Assembly: GCF_033366695.1 (NCBI RefSeq)
Contig: NZ_JAOBTQ010000001.1
Location: forward strand, 7,936,001-8,000,000
Source of the DNA: Streptomyces sp. SCL15-4
GTDB taxonomy: Bacteria; Actinomycetota; Actinomycetes; Streptomycetales; Streptomycetaceae
DNA: 64,000 nt
Reading direction: 5' to 3'
Below the pieces are notes generated by a model. That model did no database searches, had not been told where the DNA came from, and saw nothing but the letters and a program-made list of their open reading frames with translations. This document shows, piece by piece, positions 47,657 through 64,000 of this stretch (the stretch's first letter is position 1; each line of letters opens with the position of its first letter). The position numbers were made by a program, and so were the translations under genes.

Positions 47657-48598
47657 GTGAATCTTCAAGTTGTCATCGGATCAGGGCCCGCCGGGGCCGC
47701 CACCGCGCGGCTGCTGGCCGAACAGGGCCACCGCGTACGGGTCATCACCCGATCGGGCCGCGCCCCCGAGCCCGGCATCGAGCACCTCGCGCTGGACGCC
47801 GCGGACCCGGAGGCGCTCACCGAGGCCGTCCGCGGCGCGACCGCCGTCTACGGCTGTGCCGCACCCCCTTACCACCGCTGGACGACCGACTGGCCACCGC
47901 TCGCGGCCTCGCTGCACGCGGCGGCCGAGGCGACCGGCGCCGTTCTGGTCATGCTGGGCAACCTCTACGGATACGGACCGGTGGACGGACCGCTCACCGA
48001 GGACCTGTCGCTCGCGGCGACCGGACCCAAGGGCCGGGCGCGGGCCGCCGTCTGGGAGCGGACCCGGGAACTGGCCGGACAGGGACGGATCAAGGCGGTC
48101 GAGGTGCGGGCCTCGGACTTCTTCGGGCCCGGCGTGACCGACGGCGGGCACCTGGCCGCACGGGTCATGCCGCGGTTGCTGCGCGGCAAGCCGGTCTCCG
48201 CGCTCGGTGATCCCGACGCCCCGCACAGCTGGACCTACCTCCCCGACGTGGCCCGGACGCTGGCCGAGGTCGCAAGTGAGGAACGCGCCTGGGGCAGGGC
48301 CTGGCACGTCCCGACCGCACCACCGGCCTCCGTCCGCCAGATGGTGGACCGGCTCGCCGCCGAGGCGGGCACCGGACCGGTCGCGGTCCGCGGACTGCCG
48401 CCGGCCGTCCTGGGCATCGCGTCGCTCTTCTCGCCGCTCCTGCGCGAACTGAAGGAGATCCGCTACCAGTTCGACCGGCCCTTCACCGTCGACTCCAGCG
48501 CCTACGAGGCCGCGTTCTCCGTGCGGGCCACCCCGGTCGAGGAGCAGGTCGAGGCGACCGTGGACTGGTGGCGCGCCAGACAGGGTGAGGAGCAGTGA
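47657..48598 (+). CDS. Extended SDR (NAD-dependent epimerase/reductase-like)
   Basis: A 313-residue Rossmann protein. VVIGSGPAGAATARLLAEQGH is the dinucleotide-binding loop (GxGxxG-type). MLGNLYGYG supplies a Tyr, although the usual YxxxK is not obvious; HSWTYLPDVARTLAEV and AWHVPTA are extended-SDR (DUF1731/epimerase) blocks. It should reduce or oxidise a hydroxyl or keto group. GTGA overlap ties it to the KS-ACP-aminotransferase fusion that follows, so it may reduce the keto amine that protein makes. Confidence 0.85.
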   Translation: MNLQVVIGSGPAGAATARLLAEQGHRVRVITRSGRAPEPGIEHLALDAADPEALTEAVRGATAVYGCAAPPYHRWTTDWPPLAASLHAAAEATGAVLVMLGNLYGYGPVDGPLTEDLSLAATGPKGRARAAVWERTRELAGQGRIKAVEVRASDFFGPGVTDGGHLAARVMPRLLRGKPVSALGDPDAPHSWTYLPDVARTLAEVASEERAWGRAWHVPTAPPASVRQMVDRLAAEAGTGPVAVRGLPPAVLGIASLFSPLLRELKEIRYQFDRPFTVDSSAYEAAFSVRATPVEEQVEATVDWWRARQGEEQ

Positions 48599-51500
48599 GA
48601 GCGGAAACGATGCACTCTGCACCGAGTGGGTCCGCGCGCCGGGACGACATCGCGATCGTGGGCATGGCCTGCCGGTTCCCCGGGGCGCGGAACCTCAACG
48701 AGTACTGGCGGCTGCTGACCGGTCCGCGGCCGCAGTTCACCCGCATACCGGACGAGCGGTGGCGGGCCGCCGCCTTCCTCAGCGACTCCCTCCGGGACGC
48801 CTCCGCCGCCTACACCGACATCATGGCGATGCTGCCGGACGTGGGCCACTTCGACGCGGCCCACTACGGCATCCCGCCGCGCCGGGCCCGGGCGATGGAC
48901 CCGCAGCACCGGCTGCTGATCGACCTCGCCCGCGAGGCGATCCAGGACGCGGGCTGGGAGGCCGAGGGCTTCGACCGCGAGGAGACCTCGGTGATCACCT
49001 CCCTCACCGAGAGCGGATACCGCGAGATCAGCACGCTGCCGATACGGATGCGCCAGCTGGCCGGCGGCGAGTTCGGGGCCGGGGCGGCCGGTTCCGGCGA
49101 GCTGGAGATGGTGCGCGCGGTCGACCGGCTGAACGGGACGTCGGTGGCCGGGCTGCTGCTCAACATGGGCCCGAACACCGTCAGTTCCGTCTTCGACCTG
49201 CACGGGGAGAGCTACGCGCTGGACGCGGCCTGCTCCGGCGGCCTCATGGCGGTGGCCAACGCCGTGCACGCGCTGCGGGCCGGCCGCACCCGTATCGCTC
49301 TCGCCGGTGGCGCCCAACTGGCCCTGACACCGGATCTGTTGGTCGGACTGTGCCGGATCGGAGCCATCTCGCGCAGCGGCCGGTGCCTGCCGTTCGGCGC
49401 GGAGGCCGACGGCTTCGTCCTCGGCGAGGGCGCCGCCCTCCTGGTGCTGCGGCCCCTGGCCGACGCACTGGCGGCCGGGGACCGGGTCTACGCGGTGATC
49501 CGCGGCGTGGGCTCGGCCAACGACGGGACCGTGCACGGCGGCATGCAGCCGCAGGCCGCCGGCCAGCTGCGCGCACTGCGCCGGGCCTACCGCGACGCCG
49601 GCCTGACCCCGGACGCGGTGGGCTACCTGGAGGCGCACGGCACGGCGACCGCGGTCGGGGATCCGGTGGAGATCGAGGCCCTGCGCGAGCTGCGCGGGGA
49701 CGGCGGTTCGCACGCCTACCTCGGAGCGGTGAAGGCCGTGGTCGGGCACTCGCTCGGCGCCGCCGGCCTGGCGGGGCTCATGAAGGCCGCCTTGGCCGTG
49801 CACCACGGGATCGTCCCGCCGCAGCCCGCGTTCGGCCTGGCCGACTCCGCCGGACTCGACGCCGCGCGCCTGACCGTCCCGACCGAGCCGGTGCCGTGGC
49901 CGGATTCCGGGCAGCCGCGCCGGGCGGGGGTGAGCGCCTTCGGGTTCGGCGGCACCGGTGTCCACCTCGTGCTGGAGGAATCCGCCACGCGGCCGGACCG
50001 CCCGGTATCCGGGACGGGCCCGCACCTGCTCGTGCTCAGCGCGCGCGACCGGTCGGGACTGGCCCGGCACGCGCGCGAGCTGGCCCACGTCGTCGCCGCC
50101 GGCGAACCGCCGCCGGCCCAGGTGGCCGACACCCTGGCCCGCCGTACGCTCCTCGCCGAACGGCTGGCCGTGGTGGCGGAGGACGCCGCCGACGCCGTCG
50201 CCAGGCTGACCGAGGCGGCCGAGGCGGTGGCGGCGGGCCGTACGGGAGACATCGGGCCCGGGCAATGGGCCGGCACCGTGCCGCCCGACGCACCGGCCGA
50301 TGCCGCCGGGCCGGTGCCGGTGCGGCTGCCTGGCGAGACACGCACGGCCGAGCTGCTGCGGCTCGCACGGCACGCGGTCACCGGCCGGGGGCTGCGTCCC
50401 GCCGGCGAGCGCCTGCCGCCGCTGACTTTGCCGCCGAGCCCGCTGGCCCCGCGCCGGCACTGGGTGGTGGACGACTCGGCCCGCGAGACCGTGCCGGTGG
50501 ACCGGGCCCACGCGGCGGCCGAGGCGGAGGAGGCGGTGGTGCCCGCACCGGCAACGTCCGCCGTCTCCGCCGTCGTACGCGAGGAGGTGTCGCGGATCGG
50601 GGTCTTCCCGCCCCGTGACGTCCACGAACGGATGGCGCTCGTCGCCGACCTGGGCTTCGACTCGCTGATGCTGGAGGAACTCGAGGTGAGCATCGGCAAC
50701 CGGCTGCCGGGCTTCCGCACCGAGGAGATGTACGAGCCGACGCTCACCGTCGCCCGGCTGATCGAACTGGCCGCCGCGCATCCCGTCGCGGAGCCGGTCC
50801 GGGAGGGCCCGGCGCCGCAGCCGTTCCCGCACCGCCAGGAGGAGCCCCGGTGGGACACCGAGGCCTCCCGCGTCGACGACTTCCCCGAGGTGCGGCGCTT
50901 CGAGGAACGCTTCGACGCGATCACGGGAAGCGGCGCCGACTACCCCTACTTCCGTGTCCACCAGGGCAACATCCGCGACACGACCGTGGTCGGCGACCGG
51001 TCGTACCTGTCCTTCGGCAGCTACAACTATCTGGGCCTCTCCGGACACCCGGCGGTCAACGAGGCGGCGCGCCGCGCGGTGGACCGGTACGGGACCTCGG
51101 TCTCCGCCAGCCGCGTGCTCTCCGGCGAACGCGAACTGACCGTGCGGCTGGAACGCGCGCTGGCCGATTTCCTCGGCGTCGAGGACTGCGTGGCCCTGGT
51201 GAGCGGTCATGCCACCAACGTCACCGCGATCGGGCACCTCGTCGGCCGGGACGACCTCGTCCTGCACGACGCGCTCGCCCACGACAGCATCCTCCAGGGC
51301 TGCGCGCTGTCCGGGGCGGCGCGACGCCCCTTCGCCCACAACGACGTCGGCCGGCTGGAACACCTGCTGCGGGCCAACCGGTCCCGATTCCGGCGGGTGT
51401 TGATAGCCGTCGAGGGCGCCTACAGCATGGACGGCGACCTCGTCGACCTGCCGGCCCTGATCGAGCTGAAGAAGCGGTACGGCGCCCTGCTGATGGTCGA

Positions 51501-52065
51501 CGAGGCGCACAGCATCGGCACCGTGGGCGAACGCGGGCGCGGCGTGGGCGAGTTCTTCGACGTCGACCGGTCCGGCGTGGACCTGTGGATGGGCACCCTC
51601 TCCAAGGCCTTCGCCAGCTGCGGCGGTTACCTCGGCGGCTCCGCCAGGATGGTGCGGTGGCTGCGGCACACCCTGCCGGGCTTCGTCTACAGCGTCGGCC
51701 TGACCCCGGCCAACGCGGCGGCGGCGCTGGCCGCCACCGAGCTGATCGTCGCCGAACCGGAGCGGGTACGGGCCCTGCGGCGCAACGCCGACCTCTTCCG
51801 TTCGCTGGCAGCCGCGGCCGGCCTGGCCACGGGCGTCAGCGCCCACACGCCGATCGTGCCCTGTGTGCTCGGGGACTCCGCGCGGACCCTCCGCATCGCG
51901 GACCGGCTGTACGACCGCGGTGTCATAGCCGATCCGATCTTCCATCCCGCCGTGGAGGAGGGCCTGGCCCGGCTGCGGTTCTTCGTCACCAGCGAACACC
52001 GCGAAGAGGACATCCGGCGGGTGGTGTCGGTGCTGGCCGAGGAGGTGACGTCCGCCGGGGGATGA
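48595..52065 (+). CDS. Ketosynthase-ACP-alpha-oxoamine synthase fusion
   Basis: A 1156-residue three-domain enzyme. The ketosynthase (about 15-455) has C213 in LDAACSGG, H348 in EAHGTATAVGDPVE and H385 in GHSLGAAG. A linker of about 190 residues has no acyltransferase signature. An acyl carrier domain lies near 640-745, with the 4'-phosphopantetheine Ser690 in LGFDSLMLEELE. The PLP-dependent alpha-oxoamine synthase (about 760-1150) has SFGSYNYLGLSGHP, SGHATNVTAIG, VDEAHSIGTVGERGRG and K1004 in GTLSKAFASCGGYLGG. AOS enzymes condense acyl thioesters with an amino acid and lose CO2; the precedents joined to ACPs are PigH/RedL in prodiginine synthesis. It probably makes an alpha-amino ketone. Confidence 0.9.
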   Translation: MRAETMHSAPSGSARRDDIAIVGMACRFPGARNLNEYWRLLTGPRPQFTRIPDERWRAAAFLSDSLRDASAAYTDIMAMLPDVGHFDAAHYGIPPRRARAMDPQHRLLIDLAREAIQDAGWEAEGFDREETSVITSLTESGYREISTLPIRMRQLAGGEFGAGAAGSGELEMVRAVDRLNGTSVAGLLLNMGPNTVSSVFDLHGESYALDAACSGGLMAVANAVHALRAGRTRIALAGGAQLALTPDLLVGLCRIGAISRSGRCLPFGAEADGFVLGEGAALLVLRPLADALAAGDRVYAVIRGVGSANDGTVHGGMQPQAAGQLRALRRAYRDAGLTPDAVGYLEAHGTATAVGDPVEIEALRELRGDGGSHAYLGAVKAVVGHSLGAAGLAGLMKAALAVHHGIVPPQPAFGLADSAGLDAARLTVPTEPVPWPDSGQPRRAGVSAFGFGGTGVHLVLEESATRPDRPVSGTGPHLLVLSARDRSGLARHARELAHVVAAGEPPPAQVADTLARRTLLAERLAVVAEDAADAVARLTEAAEAVAAGRTGDIGPGQWAGTVPPDAPADAAGPVPVRLPGETRTAELLRLARHAVTGRGLRPAGERLPPLTLPPSPLAPRRHWVVDDSARETVPVDRAHAAAEAEEAVVPAPATSAVSAVVREEVSRIGVFPPRDVHERMALVADLGFDSLMLEELEVSIGNRLPGFRTEEMYEPTLTVARLIELAAAHPVAEPVREGPAPQPFPHRQEEPRWDTEASRVDDFPEVRRFEERFDAITGSGADYPYFRVHQGNIRDTTVVGDRSYLSFGSYNYLGLSGHPAVNEAARRAVDRYGTSVSASRVLSGERELTVRLERALADFLGVEDCVALVSGHATNVTAIGHLVGRDDLVLHDALAHDSILQGCALSGAARRPFAHNDVGRLEHLLRANRSRFRRVLIAVEGAYSMDGDLVDLPALIELKKRYGALLMVDEAHSIGTVGERGRGVGEFFDVDRSGVDLWMGTLSKAFASCGGYLGGSARMVRWLRHTLPGFVYSVGLTPANAAAALAATELIVAEPERVRALRRNADLFRSLAAAAGLATGVSAHTPIVPCVLGDSARTLRIADRLYDRGVIADPIFHPAVEEGLARLRFFVTSEHREEDIRRVVSVLAEEVTSAGG

Positions 52066-55886: not shown

Positions 55887-57263
55887 TCAGACCACCGTGA
55901 GGGATCCCGTTCGTCCGGCGTACTCCCGCAGGCCCCGCGTCGTGTCGCCCGCCCAGCCCACGTATCCGTCCGGGCGGATCAGGAAGACGCCGGGGCCGTA
56001 GGAGGCCGGGGGAGCGGGGAGCGAGGGGAGGCCCGGGAGGGTCGCTCCGAGCAGTGTCCAGTGCGGTCCGCGGAACGTGTCGAAGAGCCGTACGCCCGCC
56101 ACCGTGCCGTCGGGGGCGCGGTCGCCCGCGCGCAGCTCCCCGGCCTCCCGGCGCGTGTCGACGCTGAGGGAGGACTCCCGGTAGCCGACTCCGAGCTGCA
56201 CCGTCGCCCTGCCGCGCCGCACCTCCCCGCGGTGCACGCCCGTCGACAGCTCCAGCATGGCCGCGGCGTTCGCCCGGCGCTCCTCCTCGTACGTGTCCAG
56301 CAGCGCGTCCGGCGCCCCGCCCCGCAGCACCGCGCCCAGCTTCCAGCCCAGGTTGTAGGCGTCCTGCACGCTGGTGTTCAGGCCTTGGGCGCCGGCCGGC
56401 GAGTGCACGTGCGCCGCGTCACCGGCGAGGAACACCCGGCCCACCCGGAACCGGTCCGCCAGGGCCGCCCGCGGCCGGAAGACGGACGCCCAGCCGACCT
56501 CCGTCACGTCCTCCGCGTCCAGGTGCGTGCCGCGGGCGACCAGCTTGCGGATGCCGTCGGGGGACACGTCCGGCCGCGACCCCTCCGGCAGGCGGGCCGC
56601 CAGCTGGAAGTCCTCCGTCCCGGCCAGCGGGCACAGCCCGAGGAAGCCGCCGTCGTCTCCGGGGAAGGCGTGCCAGTGGACCCGGTCCAGACCCTTCAGC
56701 CGCAGGTCCGCCACCACGAACGGCGCGGGGTCGACCGCCTCCCCGGTCATGCCGACGCCCAGCGCCTGCCGGACCGCCGAGCGCCCGCCGTCGGCCGCGA
56801 CCGCGTACCGCGCGCGCAGTGCCGTACCGTCGGCGAACCGCGCCGTCACACCCTGTCCGTCCTGTGTCAGGGCCGTCACCTCGCGCCCGAAGGCGACCTT
56901 GCCTCCCAGTCGGGTCAGCCGCGCGTACAGCACCTCCTGCGTCCGCCACTGCGGGATCATCAGCGGCTCGCTGTAGGGCATGCCCTCGTCCGCGTCCAGC
57001 TTCTCGAACATCGACTCCTCGCCGAGCCGTTCGCCGTCCTTCCAGATCATCCGGTCCGGGTAGGGGCCGCCCGCCGCCCGGATGGCGTCCAGCACGCCGA
57101 GATCGTCGAAGACCTCCTGCGTACGCGGCTGGAGTCCCTTGCCGCGCGATCCGGGAAAGAGGTGCTCGCCCCGCTCCACGACCAGCGCGTCCACACCCCG
57201 GCGCGCCAGGTCGATGCCGAGGGTGAGGCCGGTCGGACCCGCACCCACGATCAGAACATCCAT
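55887..57263 (-). CDS. FAD-dependent aromatic monooxygenase (RIF-MO/phenol-hydroxylase type)
   Basis: A 458-residue class A flavin monooxygenase. MDVLIVGAGPTGLTLGIDLARRGVD is the FAD site; GKGLQPRTQEVFDDLGVLD, ARYAVAADGGRSAVRQALG (DG motif) and VFLAGDAAHVHSPAGAQGLNTSVQDAYNLGWKLGAVL (GD motif) are intact, and the C-terminal thioredoxin-like part ends with RPDGYVGWAG. The length and layout fit antibiotic-modifying hydroxylases such as the rifampicin monooxygenase, but the substrate is unknown. ATG at 57263 has AAGGAG upstream. A TetR gene is divergent and two perfect operators lie between. Confidence 0.9.
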   Translation of the reverse strand: MDVLIVGAGPTGLTLGIDLARRGVDALVVERGEHLFPGSRGKGLQPRTQEVFDDLGVLDAIRAAGGPYPDRMIWKDGERLGEESMFEKLDADEGMPYSEPLMIPQWRTQEVLYARLTRLGGKVAFGREVTALTQDGQGVTARFADGTALRARYAVAADGGRSAVRQALGVGMTGEAVDPAPFVVADLRLKGLDRVHWHAFPGDDGGFLGLCPLAGTEDFQLAARLPEGSRPDVSPDGIRKLVARGTHLDAEDVTEVGWASVFRPRAALADRFRVGRVFLAGDAAHVHSPAGAQGLNTSVQDAYNLGWKLGAVLRGGAPDALLDTYEEERRANAAAMLELSTGVHRGEVRRGRATVQLGVGYRESSLSVDTRREAGELRAGDRAPDGTVAGVRLFDTFRGPHWTLLGATLPGLPSLPAPPASYGPGVFLIRPDGYVGWAGDTTRGLREYAGRTGSLTVV

Positions 57264-57273
57264 GACATTTCTC

Positions 57274-57288
57274 CTTAACATCGTTAAG
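57274..57288. promoter_or_regulatory. TetR operator 1
   Basis: CTTAAC-ATC-GTTAAG, a perfect 6-bp inverted repeat 10 bases upstream of the monooxygenase start, partly covering its ribosome binding region. An identical pair of half-sites recurs at 57311. Confidence 0.85.
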
Positions 57289-57310
57289 TTCTGCCCTTCG
57301 AGAGACTGCC

Positions 57311-57325
57311 CTTAACGGTGTTAAG
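57311..57325. promoter_or_regulatory. TetR operator 2
   Basis: CTTAAC-GGT-GTTAAG, with the same half-sites as operator 1, 9 bases before the tetR GTG. Centre-to-centre spacing is 37 bases, so the two dimers would cover the whole divergent promoter. Confidence 0.85.
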
Positions 57326-57334
57326 CTGTCAAGC

Positions 57335-57988
57335 GTGAGTACGGACAAGCGCGCTCCCCTCGACCGCGAGCGGGTCGCCGACACCGCCCTGCGACTGCTG
57401 AACGAGGTCGGCCTGGACGGGCTGACGCTGCGGGCCATCGCCAAGGAGCTGGACGTCAAGGCACCCGCCCTGTACTGGCACTTCAAGGACAAGCAGGCGC
57501 TGCTGGACGAGATGGCGACGCTGATGTACCGGCGGATGCTCGCCCACACCGCGCTCGACCCCTGCGACACATGGCGGGAACGGCTGCTCGCCGTCAACCG
57601 GGGCTTGCGAAGCGCGCTGCTCGGTTACCGCGACGGCGCCAGGGTCTTCAGCGGCTCACGCTTCACGAGCACGGACCACGCCCCCGCGCTGGAGGCGAAC
57701 CTGCGGCTGCTGACCGGGGCGGGACTCGGCCTCACCGAGGCGGTCGACGCGGGGCGCACCGTGAACGCCTACACCATCGGCTTCGTCATCGAGGAACAGG
57801 GTGTGCGGCCCCTCCCGGGCGAGCGCCGGGAAGGGTTCGACATCGAGGACCGCGCCCGCCGCATGGCCGGCTTCCCGCTGGCGGCCGAGGCCGGCAGGCT
57901 CCTCTTCGACGACTACGACCGGCAGTTCGAGGAAGGCCTGGCACTCGTCGTCGCCGGCATCGCGGCGCGATACGGACTCGCGCCGTGA
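57335..57988 (+). CDS. TetR repressor of the monooxygenase
   Basis: A 217-residue regulator close in layout to the classical TetR class: LDRERVADTALRLLNEVGLDGLTLRAIAKELDVKAPALYWHFKDKQALLDEMA, then a TetR_C domain (WRERLLAVNRGLRSALLGYRDGARVF, TVNAYTIGFVIEEQG). The start GTG is 9 bases after operator 2, with little room for a ribosome binding site, so the transcript may be leaderless. It should repress itself and the divergent monooxygenase until a ligand, probably the monooxygenase substrate, binds. Confidence 0.9.
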   Translation: MSTDKRAPLDRERVADTALRLLNEVGLDGLTLRAIAKELDVKAPALYWHFKDKQALLDEMATLMYRRMLAHTALDPCDTWRERLLAVNRGLRSALLGYRDGARVFSGSRFTSTDHAPALEANLRLLTGAGLGLTEAVDAGRTVNAYTIGFVIEEQGVRPLPGERREGFDIEDRARRMAGFPLAAEAGRLLFDDYDRQFEEGLALVVAGIAARYGLAP

Positions 57989-59641: not shown

Positions 59642-60462
59642 GCTCCTGCCACGCCGCGGCGGGACCTGTCCCGGGCGTCCTCCGAAGGGTGCGGCGACGC
59701 TCAGGCAGGCCCGGTCCGCGTCGCCGCCGGCAACGCATGAAGGCGGCCGGTCTCTGTGTCGCCGACATCCCCGGCATCGCCCGCATCGCCGATGGCCCTG
59801 GTATCGCCCGCCGGCGGCAGCGGACCGTCCGCCTGGCCGCCGCCCGTGGGCCCGTCGCCGCACCCATCGGTGCTTTCGCGCGCGTGTGCGGGCCTGCGCC
59901 GTGACGACGGATCCGCCTCGGCACCCGTGCCGACTGCCCCGTTGCCTGCCGTCATCGTCCACCGCCGCGCGCGGTCCGCGAGCGGCGGCTGCGTGGGCGC
60001 ACGCCCCCGGAAGCGGCCCGGACCGGCGCCCGCACCCACCGGACGCACCGCCGATTTGACGAACGGCCGTACGCCGGACGAGAGTTGGCCCGGACCGGCC
60101 TGGCCCCCGAGTGCGGCCGTCGGCCGAGTGTTTCCGCTGCCCGTGTGTCGTCGGCCGGGTGGACGCCACGGCCCGCCGGGACGGGTGCGGCGCCGGAGAC
60201 CGGGCCCGGAATTCGGATCATGGCCTGAAACTCCGTTGTACGAAATGTTGCGGCTGCGTAAAAAACGCGTACTTGACAGGCACTGATCGCGATAAAAGGC
60301 GTGATGGTGCCGGTGCGGCCATGGATTGATTGCTTCCGTTTTCCTGTTTCCGCTCTCCTGTTTCAGGCCGTATTCCCGAGGGTGTGTTGCATGTCTCGTC
60401 GTGCCTCGTGTTGGCTATGCCCTGGGCCGAGCGCCTCGTGATCAACGAGAGGGAAGCTGCTT
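59642..60462. other. Long intergenic region before the peptide system
   Basis: About 820 bases without a supported gene. The first 560 are very GC-rich; around 59760-59815 short CATCGCC/CATCCCC steps recur irregularly. From 60225 the GC content drops sharply, marking the promoter zone of the peptide locus. Frames here have no protein-like pattern. Confidence 0.5.
60236..60264 (+). promoter_or_regulatory. Probable promoter of the peptide locus
   Basis: TTGTAC (60236-60241) and TAAAAA (60259-60264) are separated by exactly 17 bases, an unusually good vegetative-type promoter for this genome. A second TTGACA lies at 60273-60278 without an equally good -10. A leader of roughly 190 bases would precede the first gene at 60463. 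Confidence 0.6.
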
Positions 60463-61536
60463 ATGGCGAGGGTTAAGATCAATCCTGCTCGATACAGCCA
60501 GTTCGGGCCGGCGGAGGGAAGCATCTTCTGCCTGATTACGAACCGCGAGCTCGAGGCCGAGCTGGAGATCGTCGAGGAAGCGCCGTACGCCGAATATCGG
60601 ACGATCTTTATCGGCAAGGGCGACGACTTCGAGTCCATGCTGGCTGACGAAACCATTCCTCAGCAGTCACACTCCTTGGTCATCTCGCCGTACCGCTTTT
60701 TTGAGTCGCCCTCGGAAGAAGCCCTCGGTCCTCGCCGCAAGCTGATGGGGATGGCCTGCAACTCGACGCCCGCGGATCTCGAGATCATCCGGCACTTCAT
60801 CCGTGTCATCGAGAACACCTCCGCGAAGGAGCAGGGCGAGTTCAGCGACCGCTTCTTCGAGCTGGCCGAGACCACGGACCACCTGCTCTACGTCGACGAG
60901 CGGCACGGCACCCGCGCCGTGCTCGATCACCTCGCCGAGGACCTGATCTGGAACCAGCAGGCCGGCCCCCTCGAATGGGGAGAGCAGCAGATCGTCCCCT
61001 CCGGGGAGATCAGCGTGCTGCCGATGCAGATCGTCGAATTCGACGAAAAGCTGCACCTCCCGCTCGAAGGCAGCATCGCGTTCCGCGGATTCCCCATCCT
61101 GCACAGCGGCACGCCGTCGTTCACGCGCAAGGACCAGGCCCGCCTGTCCGGCAAGCTCGCCGGCCTGCAACACGAAGCGATCGTCTGCGACGTCACCAAA
61201 GGCACGATCACCTCCTTGCGTCCCTTCCGGAAGGAAGGCGCCGAGGTCGCCAAGGTCTTCGAGGCCATGTTCGAGATCGACTCGCGCTACGCGCTGGTCT
61301 GGGAGATCGGACACGCCCTCAACACCAGCCTGGACATTCTTCCGGGCAACCATGCCATGAACGAGGTGTACGGCGGTGAACGAGGCTGCCTCCACTGGGG
61401 CCTGGGGCTCACGCCCTTCACCCAGTACCACCTCGACATCATCTCGCCCGACACCACCGTCTACACCGAAAACGGAGACGTGGTCCTGGGTGACAAAGGC
61501 GGCGCTCCCAGCGTTCGTATGGCCCCTGTCGGCTGA
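60463..61536 (+). CDS. M29-peptidase-like protein A of the peptide locus, function unknown
   Basis: A 357-residue cytosolic protein. The C-terminal part, LVWEIGHALNTSLD, NEVYGGERGCLHWGLG, QYHLDIISPDTTVYTENGDVVL, resembles the end of M29 aminopeptidases (E.G.GTN, DE..GT.H.ALG, HWD...DPTV). The N-terminal half (RVKINPARYSQFGPAEGSIFCLI) resembles protein B at 61915 over its whole length, so the two are paralogues. Known M29 metal ligands are only partly recognisable; it may bind rather than cut peptides. Codon use is a little less GC-rich at the start. RBS GAGGGAA precedes ATG. It is 57 bases before peptide 1. Confidence 0.75.
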   Translation: MARVKINPARYSQFGPAEGSIFCLITNRELEAELEIVEEAPYAEYRTIFIGKGDDFESMLADETIPQQSHSLVISPYRFFESPSEEALGPRRKLMGMACNSTPADLEIIRHFIRVIENTSAKEQGEFSDRFFELAETTDHLLYVDERHGTRAVLDHLAEDLIWNQQAGPLEWGEQQIVPSGEISVLPMQIVEFDEKLHLPLEGSIAFRGFPILHSGTPSFTRKDQARLSGKLAGLQHEAIVCDVTKGTITSLRPFRKEGAEVAKVFEAMFEIDSRYALVWEIGHALNTSLDILPGNHAMNEVYGGERGCLHWGLGLTPFTQYHLDIISPDTTVYTENGDVVLGDKGGAPSVRMAPVG

Positions 61537-61593
61537 CCGGGGCATGAGCGAATCGCATGAGCGTGAAATCCACGCCGAAAGGAGGTGACGGCC

Positions 61594-61653
61594 ATGAAGA
61601 AGACCATCAAGGTCCGCAAGAACAGCAACTACCTCGGCACCCTGCTGGGCTGA
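61594..61653 (+). CDS. 19-residue precursor or signal peptide, copy 1
   Basis: ATG to TGA encodes MKKTIKVRKNSNYLGTLLG. A full-strength ribosome binding site AAAGGAGGTGA lies 7 bases upstream. The peptide is basic at the N-terminus (K2, K3, K6, R8, K9) and neutral with Tyr-Leu-Gly-Thr-Leu-Leu-Gly at the C-terminus, a leader/core-like split. Copy 2 encodes the same protein sequence. It lies between two paralogous M29-like proteins. No Cys, Ser-rich or Trp core is present, so it is not a typical lanthipeptide. It is the likely substrate of the neighbouring proteins. Confidence 0.85.
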   Translation: MKKTIKVRKNSNYLGTLLG

Positions 61654-61723
61654 GCCGGGTAGTCGGGCCGGTTTCCCGGGCCCGTCTCCTGTCGGATCGA
61701 GCACCGGTTTGGGGGTGTGCGCC

Positions 61724-61783
61724 ATGAAGAAGACCATCAAGGTCCGCAAGAACAGCAACTACCTCGGCACCCTCCTGGGCTGA
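61724..61783 (+). CDS. 19-residue precursor or signal peptide, copy 2
   Basis: The product is the same 19 residues as copy 1, 130 bases downstream (start to start). The 60-base coding sequences differ only at one synonymous base (CTG versus CTC for the first Leu of LLG). The flanks GCC before and TGAGCC after are also shared, but the ribosome binding site is different (GGGGGTG), so the copies are not simply a long perfect repeat. The gap between the copies contains a small hairpin (CGGGCC/GGCCCG around 61666-61686). Confidence 0.85.
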   Translation: MKKTIKVRKNSNYLGTLLG

Positions 61784-61842
61784 GCCGAGTAGCAGGCAGC
61801 CACGCGCGAACGCTCCAGAAGCATCGCGCCGGGCGTGCCGTA

Positions 61843-61881
61843 AGCGGGGCGGGCCGAGGTGATAGCTCGGCCCGCCCCGCT
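61843..61881 (+). terminator. Hairpin attenuator between peptide copy 2 and protein B
   Basis: AGCGGGGCGGGCCGAG and its exact complement form a perfect 16-bp stem with a 7-base loop, 59 bases after peptide 2 and 33 bases before protein B. It should stop most transcripts, so that peptides are made in excess over protein B and the S9 peptidase. Confidence 0.85.
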
Positions 61882-61914
61882 GACATACCGGCACAACGAC
61901 CTGGGAGTGTCACA

Positions 61915-62985
61915 GTGATTATCGTCCGCCCTGAAGCCTATCGCCAGTACCCGGCAGGCCATAACCGATTCACGCTCGTTGTGGAAGAGCGGTTCTCCGA
62001 CCAGATCCGGTTGGAGCCCCCGAGCCGCTACGAGGCATGGGACACGGTCACGGCCGGGCCGGACCGCTCCCTGAGCGACCTGCTGCGCTCCGGCATCCCG
62101 ACGGACAGTGACGTTCTCGTCGTTGCCCAGGACGACCGGCTGCTGACGGCGCCTGCCGCCGAGGTGGGCCCGGACCGTACCGTCGCCACTCTCCGCGCGG
62201 GCACCGGTCCCTTCGCCCTCGACCAACTGGGCGGGCTGCTCGCGGCGCTGGAGAAGACCGACCCCAGCACCCTCGACGCCGCCGGCACGGCGTTCGGCGA
62301 TGCCGTGGCGGGGGCCGGCGGCCTGGTCCTGGAAGAGGCCCTGACCGGAGCCGTGGCGAAGATGACCTTCACCGCGCCGACATGGTCCCGGACCGACACC
62401 GGCACCTTCCGGACCGGCACCGCGCAGAACGCGTTCGCCGGCCTGCGAAGCCTGGACCTCACGGGTGCCGGCACCAGCGTCACCGGTCAGATCGCCGTGA
62501 AGGGCTGGTCCGTCGTCCGCACGCGCGAGCCGGACACGGCCGCCTGCCAGGAGCTGTTCGAGAAGCTGTCCGGACTCTTCCACTACCCGCTCGTCCTCAC
62601 CGTCGAGGACGGATCGGTGACCGAGATGAAGGCGACGGAGACCGGGTCGGCGTCCGCGGCCACCGCCCTGACACAGCTCTTCGCCACGGACCCCGGCCAC
62701 GCCAAGGTCACCGGACTGGAGTTCGGCCTCAACCCGGCCGTCCCGCAGCTGCCCTTCAACTCCGAGTCCAACGCCGTCGGCACGGGCAAGGCCGCGGCCT
62801 CCGTCCACCTGGTGCTCGGCGCGCTGCCGCAGACCGGGTTCCAGGTCGTCCTGGACTGCGCCACCAGCTCCCTCAGCGTGCTCGGCGGCGACGCCCCCCT
62901 GGCCGGAGCGGGCACGGCCCCCACCGCTCAGGGCCCCCGCCGCCGGATGAACCGCGTCTCGTCGGCCAGCTGCGGTTGCCACTGA
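61915..62985 (+). CDS. M29-peptidase-like protein B of the peptide locus, function unknown
   Basis: A 356-residue paralogue of protein A: IVRPEAYRQYPAGHNRFTLVV aligns with KINPARYSQFGPAEGSIFCLI, and DRSLSDLLRSGIPTDSDVLVVA with the matching block of A. The C-terminal part, VTGLEFGLNPAVPQLPFNSE and ASVHLVLGALPQTGFQVVLDC, resembles the M29 end (G.GTN...N, GT.H.ALG). Metal ligands seem fewer than in A. The last residues RRRMNRVSSASCGCH form an unusual tail with two Cys. GTG at 61915 has GGGAG upstream. The S9 gene starts 1 base after its stop, so they are coupled. Confidence 0.75.
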   Translation: MIIVRPEAYRQYPAGHNRFTLVVEERFSDQIRLEPPSRYEAWDTVTAGPDRSLSDLLRSGIPTDSDVLVVAQDDRLLTAPAAEVGPDRTVATLRAGTGPFALDQLGGLLAALEKTDPSTLDAAGTAFGDAVAGAGGLVLEEALTGAVAKMTFTAPTWSRTDTGTFRTGTAQNAFAGLRSLDLTGAGTSVTGQIAVKGWSVVRTREPDTAACQELFEKLSGLFHYPLVLTVEDGSVTEMKATETGSASAATALTQLFATDPGHAKVTGLEFGLNPAVPQLPFNSESNAVGTGKAAASVHLVLGALPQTGFQVVLDCATSSLSVLGGDAPLAGAGTAPTAQGPRRRMNRVSSASCGCH

Positions 62986-62986
62986 C

Positions 62987-64000
62987 ATGGCCGCCTCCGA
63001 CACACCCCTGTGGGAGCAGCGCTTCCGCGCCCCGCGCCACACGCTTCCCGCCTGGGCGAAGAGCTCGCCGGAGCGCTGCGTGTTCGTCAGCGATCGCTCC
63101 GGCAACGCCCAGGTCTACTGCTGGGACCGTACGGCCGGCACCTTGCGGCAGGTCACCGATCGCGCCTCCGGCGCCCAGCACTGCGCCATCGAGGCGTCCG
63201 GCGAGGCCGTGTGGTGGTTCGCCGACACCGACGGGGACGAGCGCGGCCAGTGGATGCGGCAGCCGTTCGGCGGCGGCCCCGACGAGCCCGCCGTACGGGA
63301 CCTGGAACCGTACTGGCCCGCCGGACTCGCCCTCGGCCTGCGCGGACACAACCTGCTCGGCCACACCACCGAGCACGGCACCGACGTGTCCCTCGTCCTG
63401 CCCGGCGGCACGGCCCGCCGCCTCTACCGGCACGAGGAGCCCGCGTACGCCGTCGACCTGTCCCGTGACCTCGCCCTCGCCGTCATCGCGCACAGCGAGC
63501 GCGGCGACCTGTGGGAGCCGGGCATCCGCGTGCTGACGACGGACGGCGTCGCCGTCGCCGACCTCGACGGCGAGGCCGTGGGCTTCTCTCCCGTGCCCGG
63601 CGACAACCGGCTGCTGGTCCTGCAACCGCACGAGGACCGCTGGGAGCCCGCCCTCTACGACCCGCGCACCGGCGAACGCGTCCGCCTCGACCTCGGGCTG
63701 CCCGGCGAGGTCTCCGTGGAGTGGGCGCAGGACGCCGCGTCCCTGCTCGTCGTCCACGATCACCAGGCGCGCTCCGAGGCGTTCAGCTACGACCTGGCCG
63801 CCCGTGAGCTGACCCGGCTGAAGACTCCCGACGGCACCATCGAGCACGCGCGCACCCGCCCAGGCGGCGACGTGTGGTTCTCGTGGTCGGACTCCGCCCA
63901 CCCGCCCGTCTTCCTGGCCCTCGACAGCGACCCTCGGTTTCCCGCCGCCAGCCGTGCGCCGCAGACCGCGCTCGCCGCCGACGTATGGGTCGACGGCCCC
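62987..64000 (+). CDS. S9-family (prolyl oligopeptidase-like) peptidase, N-terminal part
   Basis: The frame is open from ATG 62987 to the window end (338 residues, cut). The visible part is the beta-propeller domain: ERCVFVSDRSGNAQVYCWDRTAGTLRQVTD, AVWWFADTDGDERGQWMRQPFGG and DNRLLVLQPHEDRWEPALYDPRTGERVRLD repeat the SDR.G..QVY.WD / G..V.WF.D pattern of S9 peptidases. The catalytic Ser-Asp-His domain lies beyond the edge. Such peptidases cut short peptides, often after Pro or Ala. Its coupling to protein B suggests it frees or trims the mature peptide. Confidence 0.85.
   Translation, partial: MAASDTPLWEQRFRAPRHTLPAWAKSSPERCVFVSDRSGNAQVYCWDRTAGTLRQVTDRASGAQHCAIEASGEAVWWFADTDGDERGQWMRQPFGGGPDEPAVRDLEPYWPAGLALGLRGHNLLGHTTEHGTDVSLVLPGGTARRLYRHEEPAYAVDLSRDLALAVIAHSERGDLWEPGIRVLTTDGVAVADLDGEAVGFSPVPGDNRLLVLQPHEDRWEPALYDPRTGERVRLDLGLPGEVSVEWAQDAASLLVVHDHQARSEAFSYDLAARELTRLKTPDGTIEHARTRPGGDVWFSWSDSAHPPVFLALDSDPRFPAASRAPQTALAADVWVDGP

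What the first reader, a model, noticed from the sequence alone, without database searches (positions are those of the whole stretch)
60236..64000. Candidate new peptide-derived system: two identical 19-aa peptides between paralogous M29-like proteins plus an S9 peptidase
Two tiny genes, each with its own ribosome binding site, encode the same peptide MKKTIKVRKNSNYLGTLLG, with a basic N-terminus and a neutral YLGTLLG C-terminus. They are flanked by two homologous ~357-residue proteins that resemble M29 peptidases only distantly, and a coupled S9 peptidase follows. I know of no described RiPP class with this precursor and these enzymes. In crocagin synthesis, two homologous peptide-binding proteins and a hydrolase act on a small precursor, so the layout is comparable, but this is an analogy of architecture only and no sequence link is claimed. 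Alternatives are a secreted quorum signal or a short cationic effector peptide.
Basis: partly seen in the sequence, partly recalled or inferred. Interest (0 to 1): 0.95.

Follow-up and report, generated by a model that had tools for sequence, protein, structure and literature searches.

The report
Invariant mini-peptide beside crocagin-fold metalloproteins
Two tiny neighbouring genes encode the same 19-residue peptide, whose last seven residues are the same in nearly every relative found across several bacterial phyla and which sits beside proteins predicted to share the fold of the crocagin peptide-binding proteins, so it is likely the raw material for a small molecule not yet identified.

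The parts
60463..61536 (+). Protein A, 357 aa: CgnB/CgnE/NicX/M29-fold protein with putative metal ligands intact
61006..61437 (+). Stretch of A with the six putative metal ligands E182, E281, E301, H311, H323, D325
   Evidence: all six invariant in the 20 A-type rows; pattern intact in 56 of 103 family rows; matched to CgnB ligands E161, E252, E274, H280, H291, D293 by order and rough spacing only
61594..61653 (+). Peptide gene 1, MKKTIKVRKNSNYLGTLLG, predicted precursor: basic leader and invariant YLGTLLG end
   Evidence: a peptide of this type in 57 of 61 loci
61724..61783 (+). Peptide gene 2, identical product
   Evidence: copies number 1 to 4 per locus in the 57 loci
61915..62985 (+). Protein B, 356 aa (GTG start): paralogue of A with the metal site lost
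62971..62982 (+). C-terminal CGCH of B, at the end of a tail predicted to be disordered (residues 339-354)
   Evidence: C353 and C355 nearly invariant (90% or more) in 48 rows; pLDDT under 50
62987..64000 (+). S9 prolyl-oligopeptidase-family protein, 587 aa; continues past the window end to 64750 (L008:8987-10750)
   Evidence: PF00326 E 2.7e-44; present in 10 of 10 loci of the window's clade

Best explanation
This is likely a RiPP-type biosynthetic operon in which the twin 19-residue peptides are predicted to be precursors whose invariant YLGTLLG end would be modified by A, a putative metalloprotein predicted to have the crocagin CgnB/CgnE fold, with likely help from its paralogue B, whose putative metal site is lost. 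Shown by sequence: the peptide and its company are conserved across phyla; A-type proteins keep six putative metal ligands; B-type proteins have lost the H-x-D pair and end in C-x-C; nine relatives have both features in one protein. Inferred: (1) the basic leader (K2, K3, K6, R8, K9) docks on A/B, as CgnA does on CgnB/CgnE. (2) A carries out metal-dependent chemistry on the core. By analogy with the zinc-assisted elimination proposed for CgnB, the likeliest target is the hydroxyl of Thr, which would explain why no hydroxylase is needed here. (3) B presents the peptide, and its flexible CGCH tail reaches A's site as a thiol arm. (4) The S9 enzyme trims the leader. (5) A small, amino-acid-like product leaves through AzlCD. 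Steps 2 and 3 are the least certain: I put the Thr chemistry at about 0.15, and the RiPP-type frame as a whole at the confidence given.
For: Peptide in 57 of 61 loci plus 3 of 3 loci new to the set (L077; L085 and L089). Exact YLGTLLG in 81 of 84 gene copies from 31 different DNA sequences, so selection acts on the peptide. One to four copies per locus, as for a consumed precursor. Structure matches to CgnE/CgnB for both A and B. Of 103 family rows: 47 intact site without tail, 44 broken site with tail, 9 both, 3 neither. Published: CgnB and CgnE bind CgnA, whose leader is rich in positive charge, and the second copy always has a damaged metal site (PMC10070186). azlC follows directly in 7 of the 9 loci whose protein has both features and in Paraburkholderia, and lies downstream in 9 of 10 window-clade loci. 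In 61 genomes of the genus (own included) the close AzlC (82% identity or more) occurs only in the two window-type genomes; the other hits are 43-45%.
Against: No product, no modification and no translation of the peptides has been seen. A heptapeptide core invariant across phyla is unusual for a RiPP, where cores usually vary (recalled). No counterpart of the crocagin oxygenase CgnC was found among the neighbours scanned; a flavin monooxygenase gene lies 3 kb upstream (55887-57281) but no relative of it showed in the flanks of the other 60 loci. azlC was not found in the 36 Type III loci, so it is not common to the whole family. Profiles of A do not reach CgnB/CgnE in the PDB by sequence. The metal-ligand match to CgnB rests on order and spacing. 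Four distant Streptomyces relatives (26-31% identity) showed no YLGTLLG peptide within 2.5 kb in a search that required a ribosome site. In Sessilibacter and Calothrix the protein with both features has no azlC beside it. The Nostoc second copy (L051) lacks the C-x-C tail.
Confidence: 0.62

Rival explanations
1. The peptide is a carrier: an amino acid is built or altered at its C-terminal glycine and then cut off, as in pearlin biosynthesis, and YLGTLLG is invariant because the enzymes read it, not because it enters the product.
For: The invariant stretch runs to the very last residue. An amino-acid exporter gene accompanies the two simpler architectures. The third architecture has a DUF2817 M14-like protein in 33 of 36 loci, and an ATP-grasp protein is near A in 19 of 61 loci; the one scanned matched PRK07206 and, below cut-off, dapdiamide synthase.
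Against: Several peptide genes per locus in 14 of 57 loci fit a consumed precursor better than a reusable carrier. No ligase that could load an amino acid was found among the scanned genes of the window's cluster or the azlCD operons.
Confidence: 0.18
2. A is an iron-dependent oxygenase like NicX rather than a zinc enzyme; it oxidises the core tyrosine, and the C-x-C tail of B (or of A itself in single-protein forms) supplies electrons.
Against: A also keeps the three glutamates of the CgnB type, which NicX's reported ligand set does not use. CgnB was found with zinc.
Confidence: 0.2
3. A and B are peptide-binding or peptide-cleaving partners of a regulatory or signal peptide; AzlCD exports it or branched-chain amino acids, and nothing is chemically modified.
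For: The smallest operon seen is peptide, one protein of this fold, azlC and azlD. The fold includes aminopeptidases.
Against: CgnB and CgnE showed no aminopeptidase activity (PMC10070186). In 36 of 61 loci the system comes with a haem-oxygenase-like iron protein and further enzymes, which speaks for biosynthesis.
Confidence: 0.1
4. The short frames are not genes; the conserved element is an RNA or DNA signal beside A.
For: The two window copies differ by a single base.
Against: Across loci the core is kept through 31 synonymous DNA versions with frame and stop kept; the place of the peptide relative to A differs between architectures; no Rfam match.
Confidence: 0.02

Closest known systems
Crocagin biosynthesis: CgnA, CgnB, CgnE (Chondromyces crocatus; PMC10070186)
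   Same: Two homologous M29-fold proteins, one with an intact and one with a damaged metal site; very short precursor with a positively charged leader; no Pfam family; a serine hydrolase nearby for leader removal (CgnD there, S9 here by inference).
   Different: Core YLGTLLG instead of Ile-Tyr-Trp; no CgnC-type oxygenase, glycosyl- or carbamoyltransferase among the neighbours scanned; here the H-x-D pair is lost in the second copy, in CgnE a Glu and a His of the other zinc; C-x-C tail; AzlCD; several peptide copies; single-protein versions; too distant for the sequence profiles used here.
NicX, 2,5-dihydroxypyridine dioxygenase (7cn3, 7cup; PMC7910607)
   Different: NicX acts on a small pyridine and uses His, Ser, His, Asp for one iron; A keeps three extra glutamates and comes with a peptide.
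M29 aminopeptidases AmpS, PepS, AmpT (1zjc, 4ics, 2ayi)
   Same: Related by fold.
Pearlins (3-thiaglutamate, 3-thiahomoleucine; PMC9303977, abstract and start of introduction seen)
   Same: Could work like them: a short ribosomal peptide may serve to make an amino-acid-like metabolite.
   Different: No PEARL-type ligase found among scanned neighbours; peptides of 16-29 aa rather than the 50-residue TglA scaffold (length from the search listing).

Membership tests
CgnB/CgnE peptide-binding proteins (crocagin type) | CgnB/CgnE fold over most of the chain | tested here: met
CgnB/CgnE peptide-binding proteins (crocagin type) | No Pfam family | tested here: met
   0 families for A and B
CgnB/CgnE peptide-binding proteins (crocagin type) | One copy with intact metal ligands, the second with ligands lost | tested here: met
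   equivalence to CgnB ligands inferred from order and spacing
CgnB/CgnE peptide-binding proteins (crocagin type) | Binds its precursor peptide | not testable with these tools
   needs purified protein
Crocagin-like gene cluster | Precursor with a basic leader near the two copies | tested here: met
Crocagin-like gene cluster | Core ending in conserved Tyr-Trp | tested here: not met
   core is YLGTLLG; no Trp in the window's peptide
Crocagin-like gene cluster | CgnC homologue (iron/2-oxoglutarate oxygenase) | tested here: not met
   none among the genes conserved with the window's cluster (A, B, S9, RraA, AzlD, AzlC, ABATE) or the other neighbours scanned; not every ORF was scanned. 36 of 61 loci have a haem-oxygenase-like protein instead, the window's clade 0 of 10
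Peptidase family M29 | Match to PF02073 | tested here: not met
   window A and B none; 1 of 54 members of A2 at E 0.15
Peptidase family M29 | M29 fold | tested here: met
NicX-type iron dioxygenase | His/Ser/His/Asp iron site | tested here: inconclusive
   H-x-D pair present in A; no residue-level structural alignment was available for the other two ligands
Pearlin pathway | PEARL ligase in the cluster | tested here: not met
   none among the neighbours scanned with Pfam; not every ORF was scanned

The most novel reading that the evidence does not exclude
A sporadic but phylum-crossing bacterial pathway makes a non-peptide, amino-acid-like metabolite out of an invariant ribosomal heptapeptide (YLGTLLG), using a crocagin-fold metalloenzyme whose metal site and cysteine arm sit in one protein in Proteobacteria and have been split between two paralogues in Streptomyces, and exports the product through the branched-chain amino-acid exporter AzlCD.
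Probability: 0.3. Interest if true: 0.92.

Novelty: new variant of a known kind. Interest (0 to 1): 0.82.

Why it matters
The crocagin paper named CgnB/CgnE as founders of a peptide-binding family and left their precise chemistry open. This family offers a simpler version: peptide, one metalloprotein and an exporter in a handful of genes. If A alone changes YLGTLLG, the catalytic role of this fold can be tested without the crocagin oxygenase. The invariance of the core, closer to cofactor precursors such as PqqA (recalled) than to ordinary RiPPs, suggests one conserved product or intermediate shared by Streptomyces, Frankia, Acinetobacter, Paraburkholderia and some cyanobacteria. The peptides are 16 to 29 residues long, so a gene caller with a length cut-off can miss them.

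Tried and rejected
Sequence route to CgnB/CgnE: profiles of A and a distant relative found only chance PDB hits; the link came from predicted structures. M29 as a plain peptidase: rejected as a filing because PF02073 is not matched and CgnB/CgnE rank higher. Mobile element: no phage record matches A and 0 viral contigs match the peptide pattern; among plasmids 9 records match A, one at 51% (Paraburkholderia) and eight Streptomyces at 30-33%. RNA element: no Rfam match. AzlCD as mere chromosomal synteny: tested and not supported. M29 family members for a ligand alignment: none in 13 genomes. Papers: 10 searches in the open library; YLGTLLG 0 papers, CgnE with homologues and RiPP 1 paper, AzlC/AzlD with gene clusters 2 papers, seen as listings and not on this topic, M29 with RiPP terms 1 unrelated listing, DUF2817 with gene cluster 0, haem-oxygenase-like with RiPP 0; crocagin itself 23 papers, of which I opened two. 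Subscription papers and bioRxiv are not covered, so 'not in print' means this library only.

Limits: one search found loci through two motifs of A (GNHAMNE and G[LI]GLTP[FY]TQ), so relatives without them are missing from the 61. Of the seven genus stretches, all seven show the peptide, but five lie on contigs whose lengths equal those of loci already in the set, so only L085 and L089 count as new; L075 and L076 likewise repeat L015 and L018. Gene calling in the loci was by my own script, and architecture counts depend on where contigs end. Rows shorter than 300 aa were left out, and one 657-aa fused row (L067) was left out of the tree. Alignment A2 contains the window's A twice.

Full report
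What is there. The window lies at G000:C1:7936001-8000000 of an 8.42 Mb genome of Streptomyces type (its closest relatives are Streptomyces). Gene A (60463-61536) is followed by two identical 19-aa genes (61594-61653 and 61724-61783), gene B (GTG 61915-62985) and an S9 peptidase that begins 2 bases later and leaves the window. A and B are paralogues at 22% identity with no Pfam or NCBIfam family. Past the window come, on the other strand, an RraA-like protein (L008:10923-11606), AzlD (L008:11621-11932) and AzlC (L008:11932-12648), then an ABATE/CGNR regulator on the plus strand.

Is the peptide real? A scan of one genome for each of 84,980 species for relatives of A gave 60 loci. With the window's own locus, 57 of 61 carry, near an A/B-family gene, a short frame ending Y-[LT]-G-[TSN]-L-[LI]-G-stop. 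The four misses are L020 and L070 (contig ends at or in the gene), L065 (broken gene at a contig end) and L069 (only a B-like relative at 30%). There are 84 gene copies, one to four per locus; 81 encode YLGTLLG exactly, in 31 different DNA versions. The exceptions are Sessilibacter (YTGSLLG) and Calothrix (YTGNLIG, two copies). The hosts are Actinomycetota, Cyanobacteriota, Chloroflexota and Pseudomonadota. Three further loci new to the set also have it: a Paraburkholderia replicon and two genus genomes (L085, L089). Distribution is sporadic: 13 of 295 genomes of the genus at E 1e-20, some of these only distant relatives, 2 of 396 of the phylum at E 1e-60, 3 of 149 in the genus of the Acinetobacter locus L058 at E 1e-40; each count includes the query's own genome.

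A division of labour. Of 103 family rows, 47 have the intact site and no cysteine tail, 44 have a broken site and a C-x-C tail, 9 have both, and 3 have neither (one of the three, L067, is a fused reading frame). The 9 are from L055-L059, L061, L062, L063 and L064, that is Pseudomonadota and Calothrix; whole-genome searches show a single copy in five of the six such genomes tested, and two adjacent copies in Sessilibacter. Paraburkholderia fits too: intact site and a GCPCLE end. In the tree all A and 'both' rows lie together (support 96/99) with no B row among them; rooting and long branches are uncertain. The simplest reading is one ancestral protein with site and tail, duplicated and split. 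The tail of B is the only stretch of its model under pLDDT 50.

Three architectures. Type I, seven loci of Pseudomonadota plus Paraburkholderia: peptide(s), one protein with site and tail, azlC directly downstream; azlD passed Pfam's cut-off in the two of these loci tested and fell 0.1 bit short in Paraburkholderia. Type II, the window and nine relatives: A, two to four peptides, B, S9 in 10 of 10; AzlC in 9 of 10, the tenth contig ending first. Type III, 36 loci: a haem-oxygenase-like protein (Haem_oxygenas_2, just below its cut-off in the two tested) and an unassigned protein of about 270 aa in 36 of 36, DUF2817 in 33 of 36, with varying aspartate-semialdehyde dehydrogenase, aspartokinase, ATP-grasp, aldehyde dehydrogenase, iron alcohol dehydrogenase and MFS genes; AzlC was not found there. 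Eight loci fit none, five of them on short or cut contigs. Three species carry both a Type II and a Type III locus (L014/L028, L012/L068, L013/L036). AzlC in Type II is not ordinary synteny: in 61 genomes of the genus its close form occurs only in the two window-type genomes.

How it would work. Shown: conservation and gene company; site and tail pattern. Predicted: the folds. Inferred: the leader docks on A/B; A acts on the core; S9 trims; AzlCD exports. For the chemistry I favour, weakly, metal-assisted elimination as proposed for CgnB, with Thr supplying the hydroxyl that CgnC must install in crocagin; all three core variants seen keep a Ser or Thr. An iron-oxygenase reading in the manner of NicX, with the cysteine tail as electron donor, is about as likely. 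The amino-acid exporter suggests a small product, which keeps open the reading that the peptide is a carrier.

Verdict. It is a new variant of the CgnB/CgnE kind: it works like the crocagin system in its protein pair and leader, but fails the crocagin-cluster tests of core and oxygenase, so I do not file it as a crocagin-like cluster.

Noticed in passing
L078:7772-7912 and L079:7532-7654 (Streptomyces plasmids): Distant relatives of A (about 30% identity) beside NRPS and GntD genes have another small ORF just upstream, 46 and 40 aa, both ending SRISKYGKYDRLEG: possibly a second peptide partner for this fold.
   Followed up: partly
L008:10747-10851 (just past the window end, overlapping the S9 stop): A 34-aa ORF MICRCAPG... 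overlaps the S9 stop codon; a similar ORF (MICLCAPG...) is at the same place in L011 but was not seen in the other eight relatives.
   Followed up: partly
L022:12459-13196 and 35 other Type III loci: A haem-oxygenase-like iron protein, an unassigned protein of about 270 aa and often a DUF2817 protein travel with A, B and the peptide; two paper searches for such sets found nothing.
   Followed up: partly
window 55887-57985: A flavin monooxygenase (FAD_binding_3) and a divergent TetR regulator lie 3 kb upstream of A; no relative showed in the flanks of the other loci.
   Followed up: partly
window 48595-52065: One 1156-aa ORF looks like a ketosynthase, an acyl-carrier-like stretch and a KAPA-synthase-like aminotransferase fused together (read from the translation only).
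   Followed up: no
L008:14099-18190 (beyond the window): Squalene-hopene cyclase, polyprenyl synthase and UbiA prenyltransferase genes in a row, a terpenoid-type cluster.
   Followed up: no
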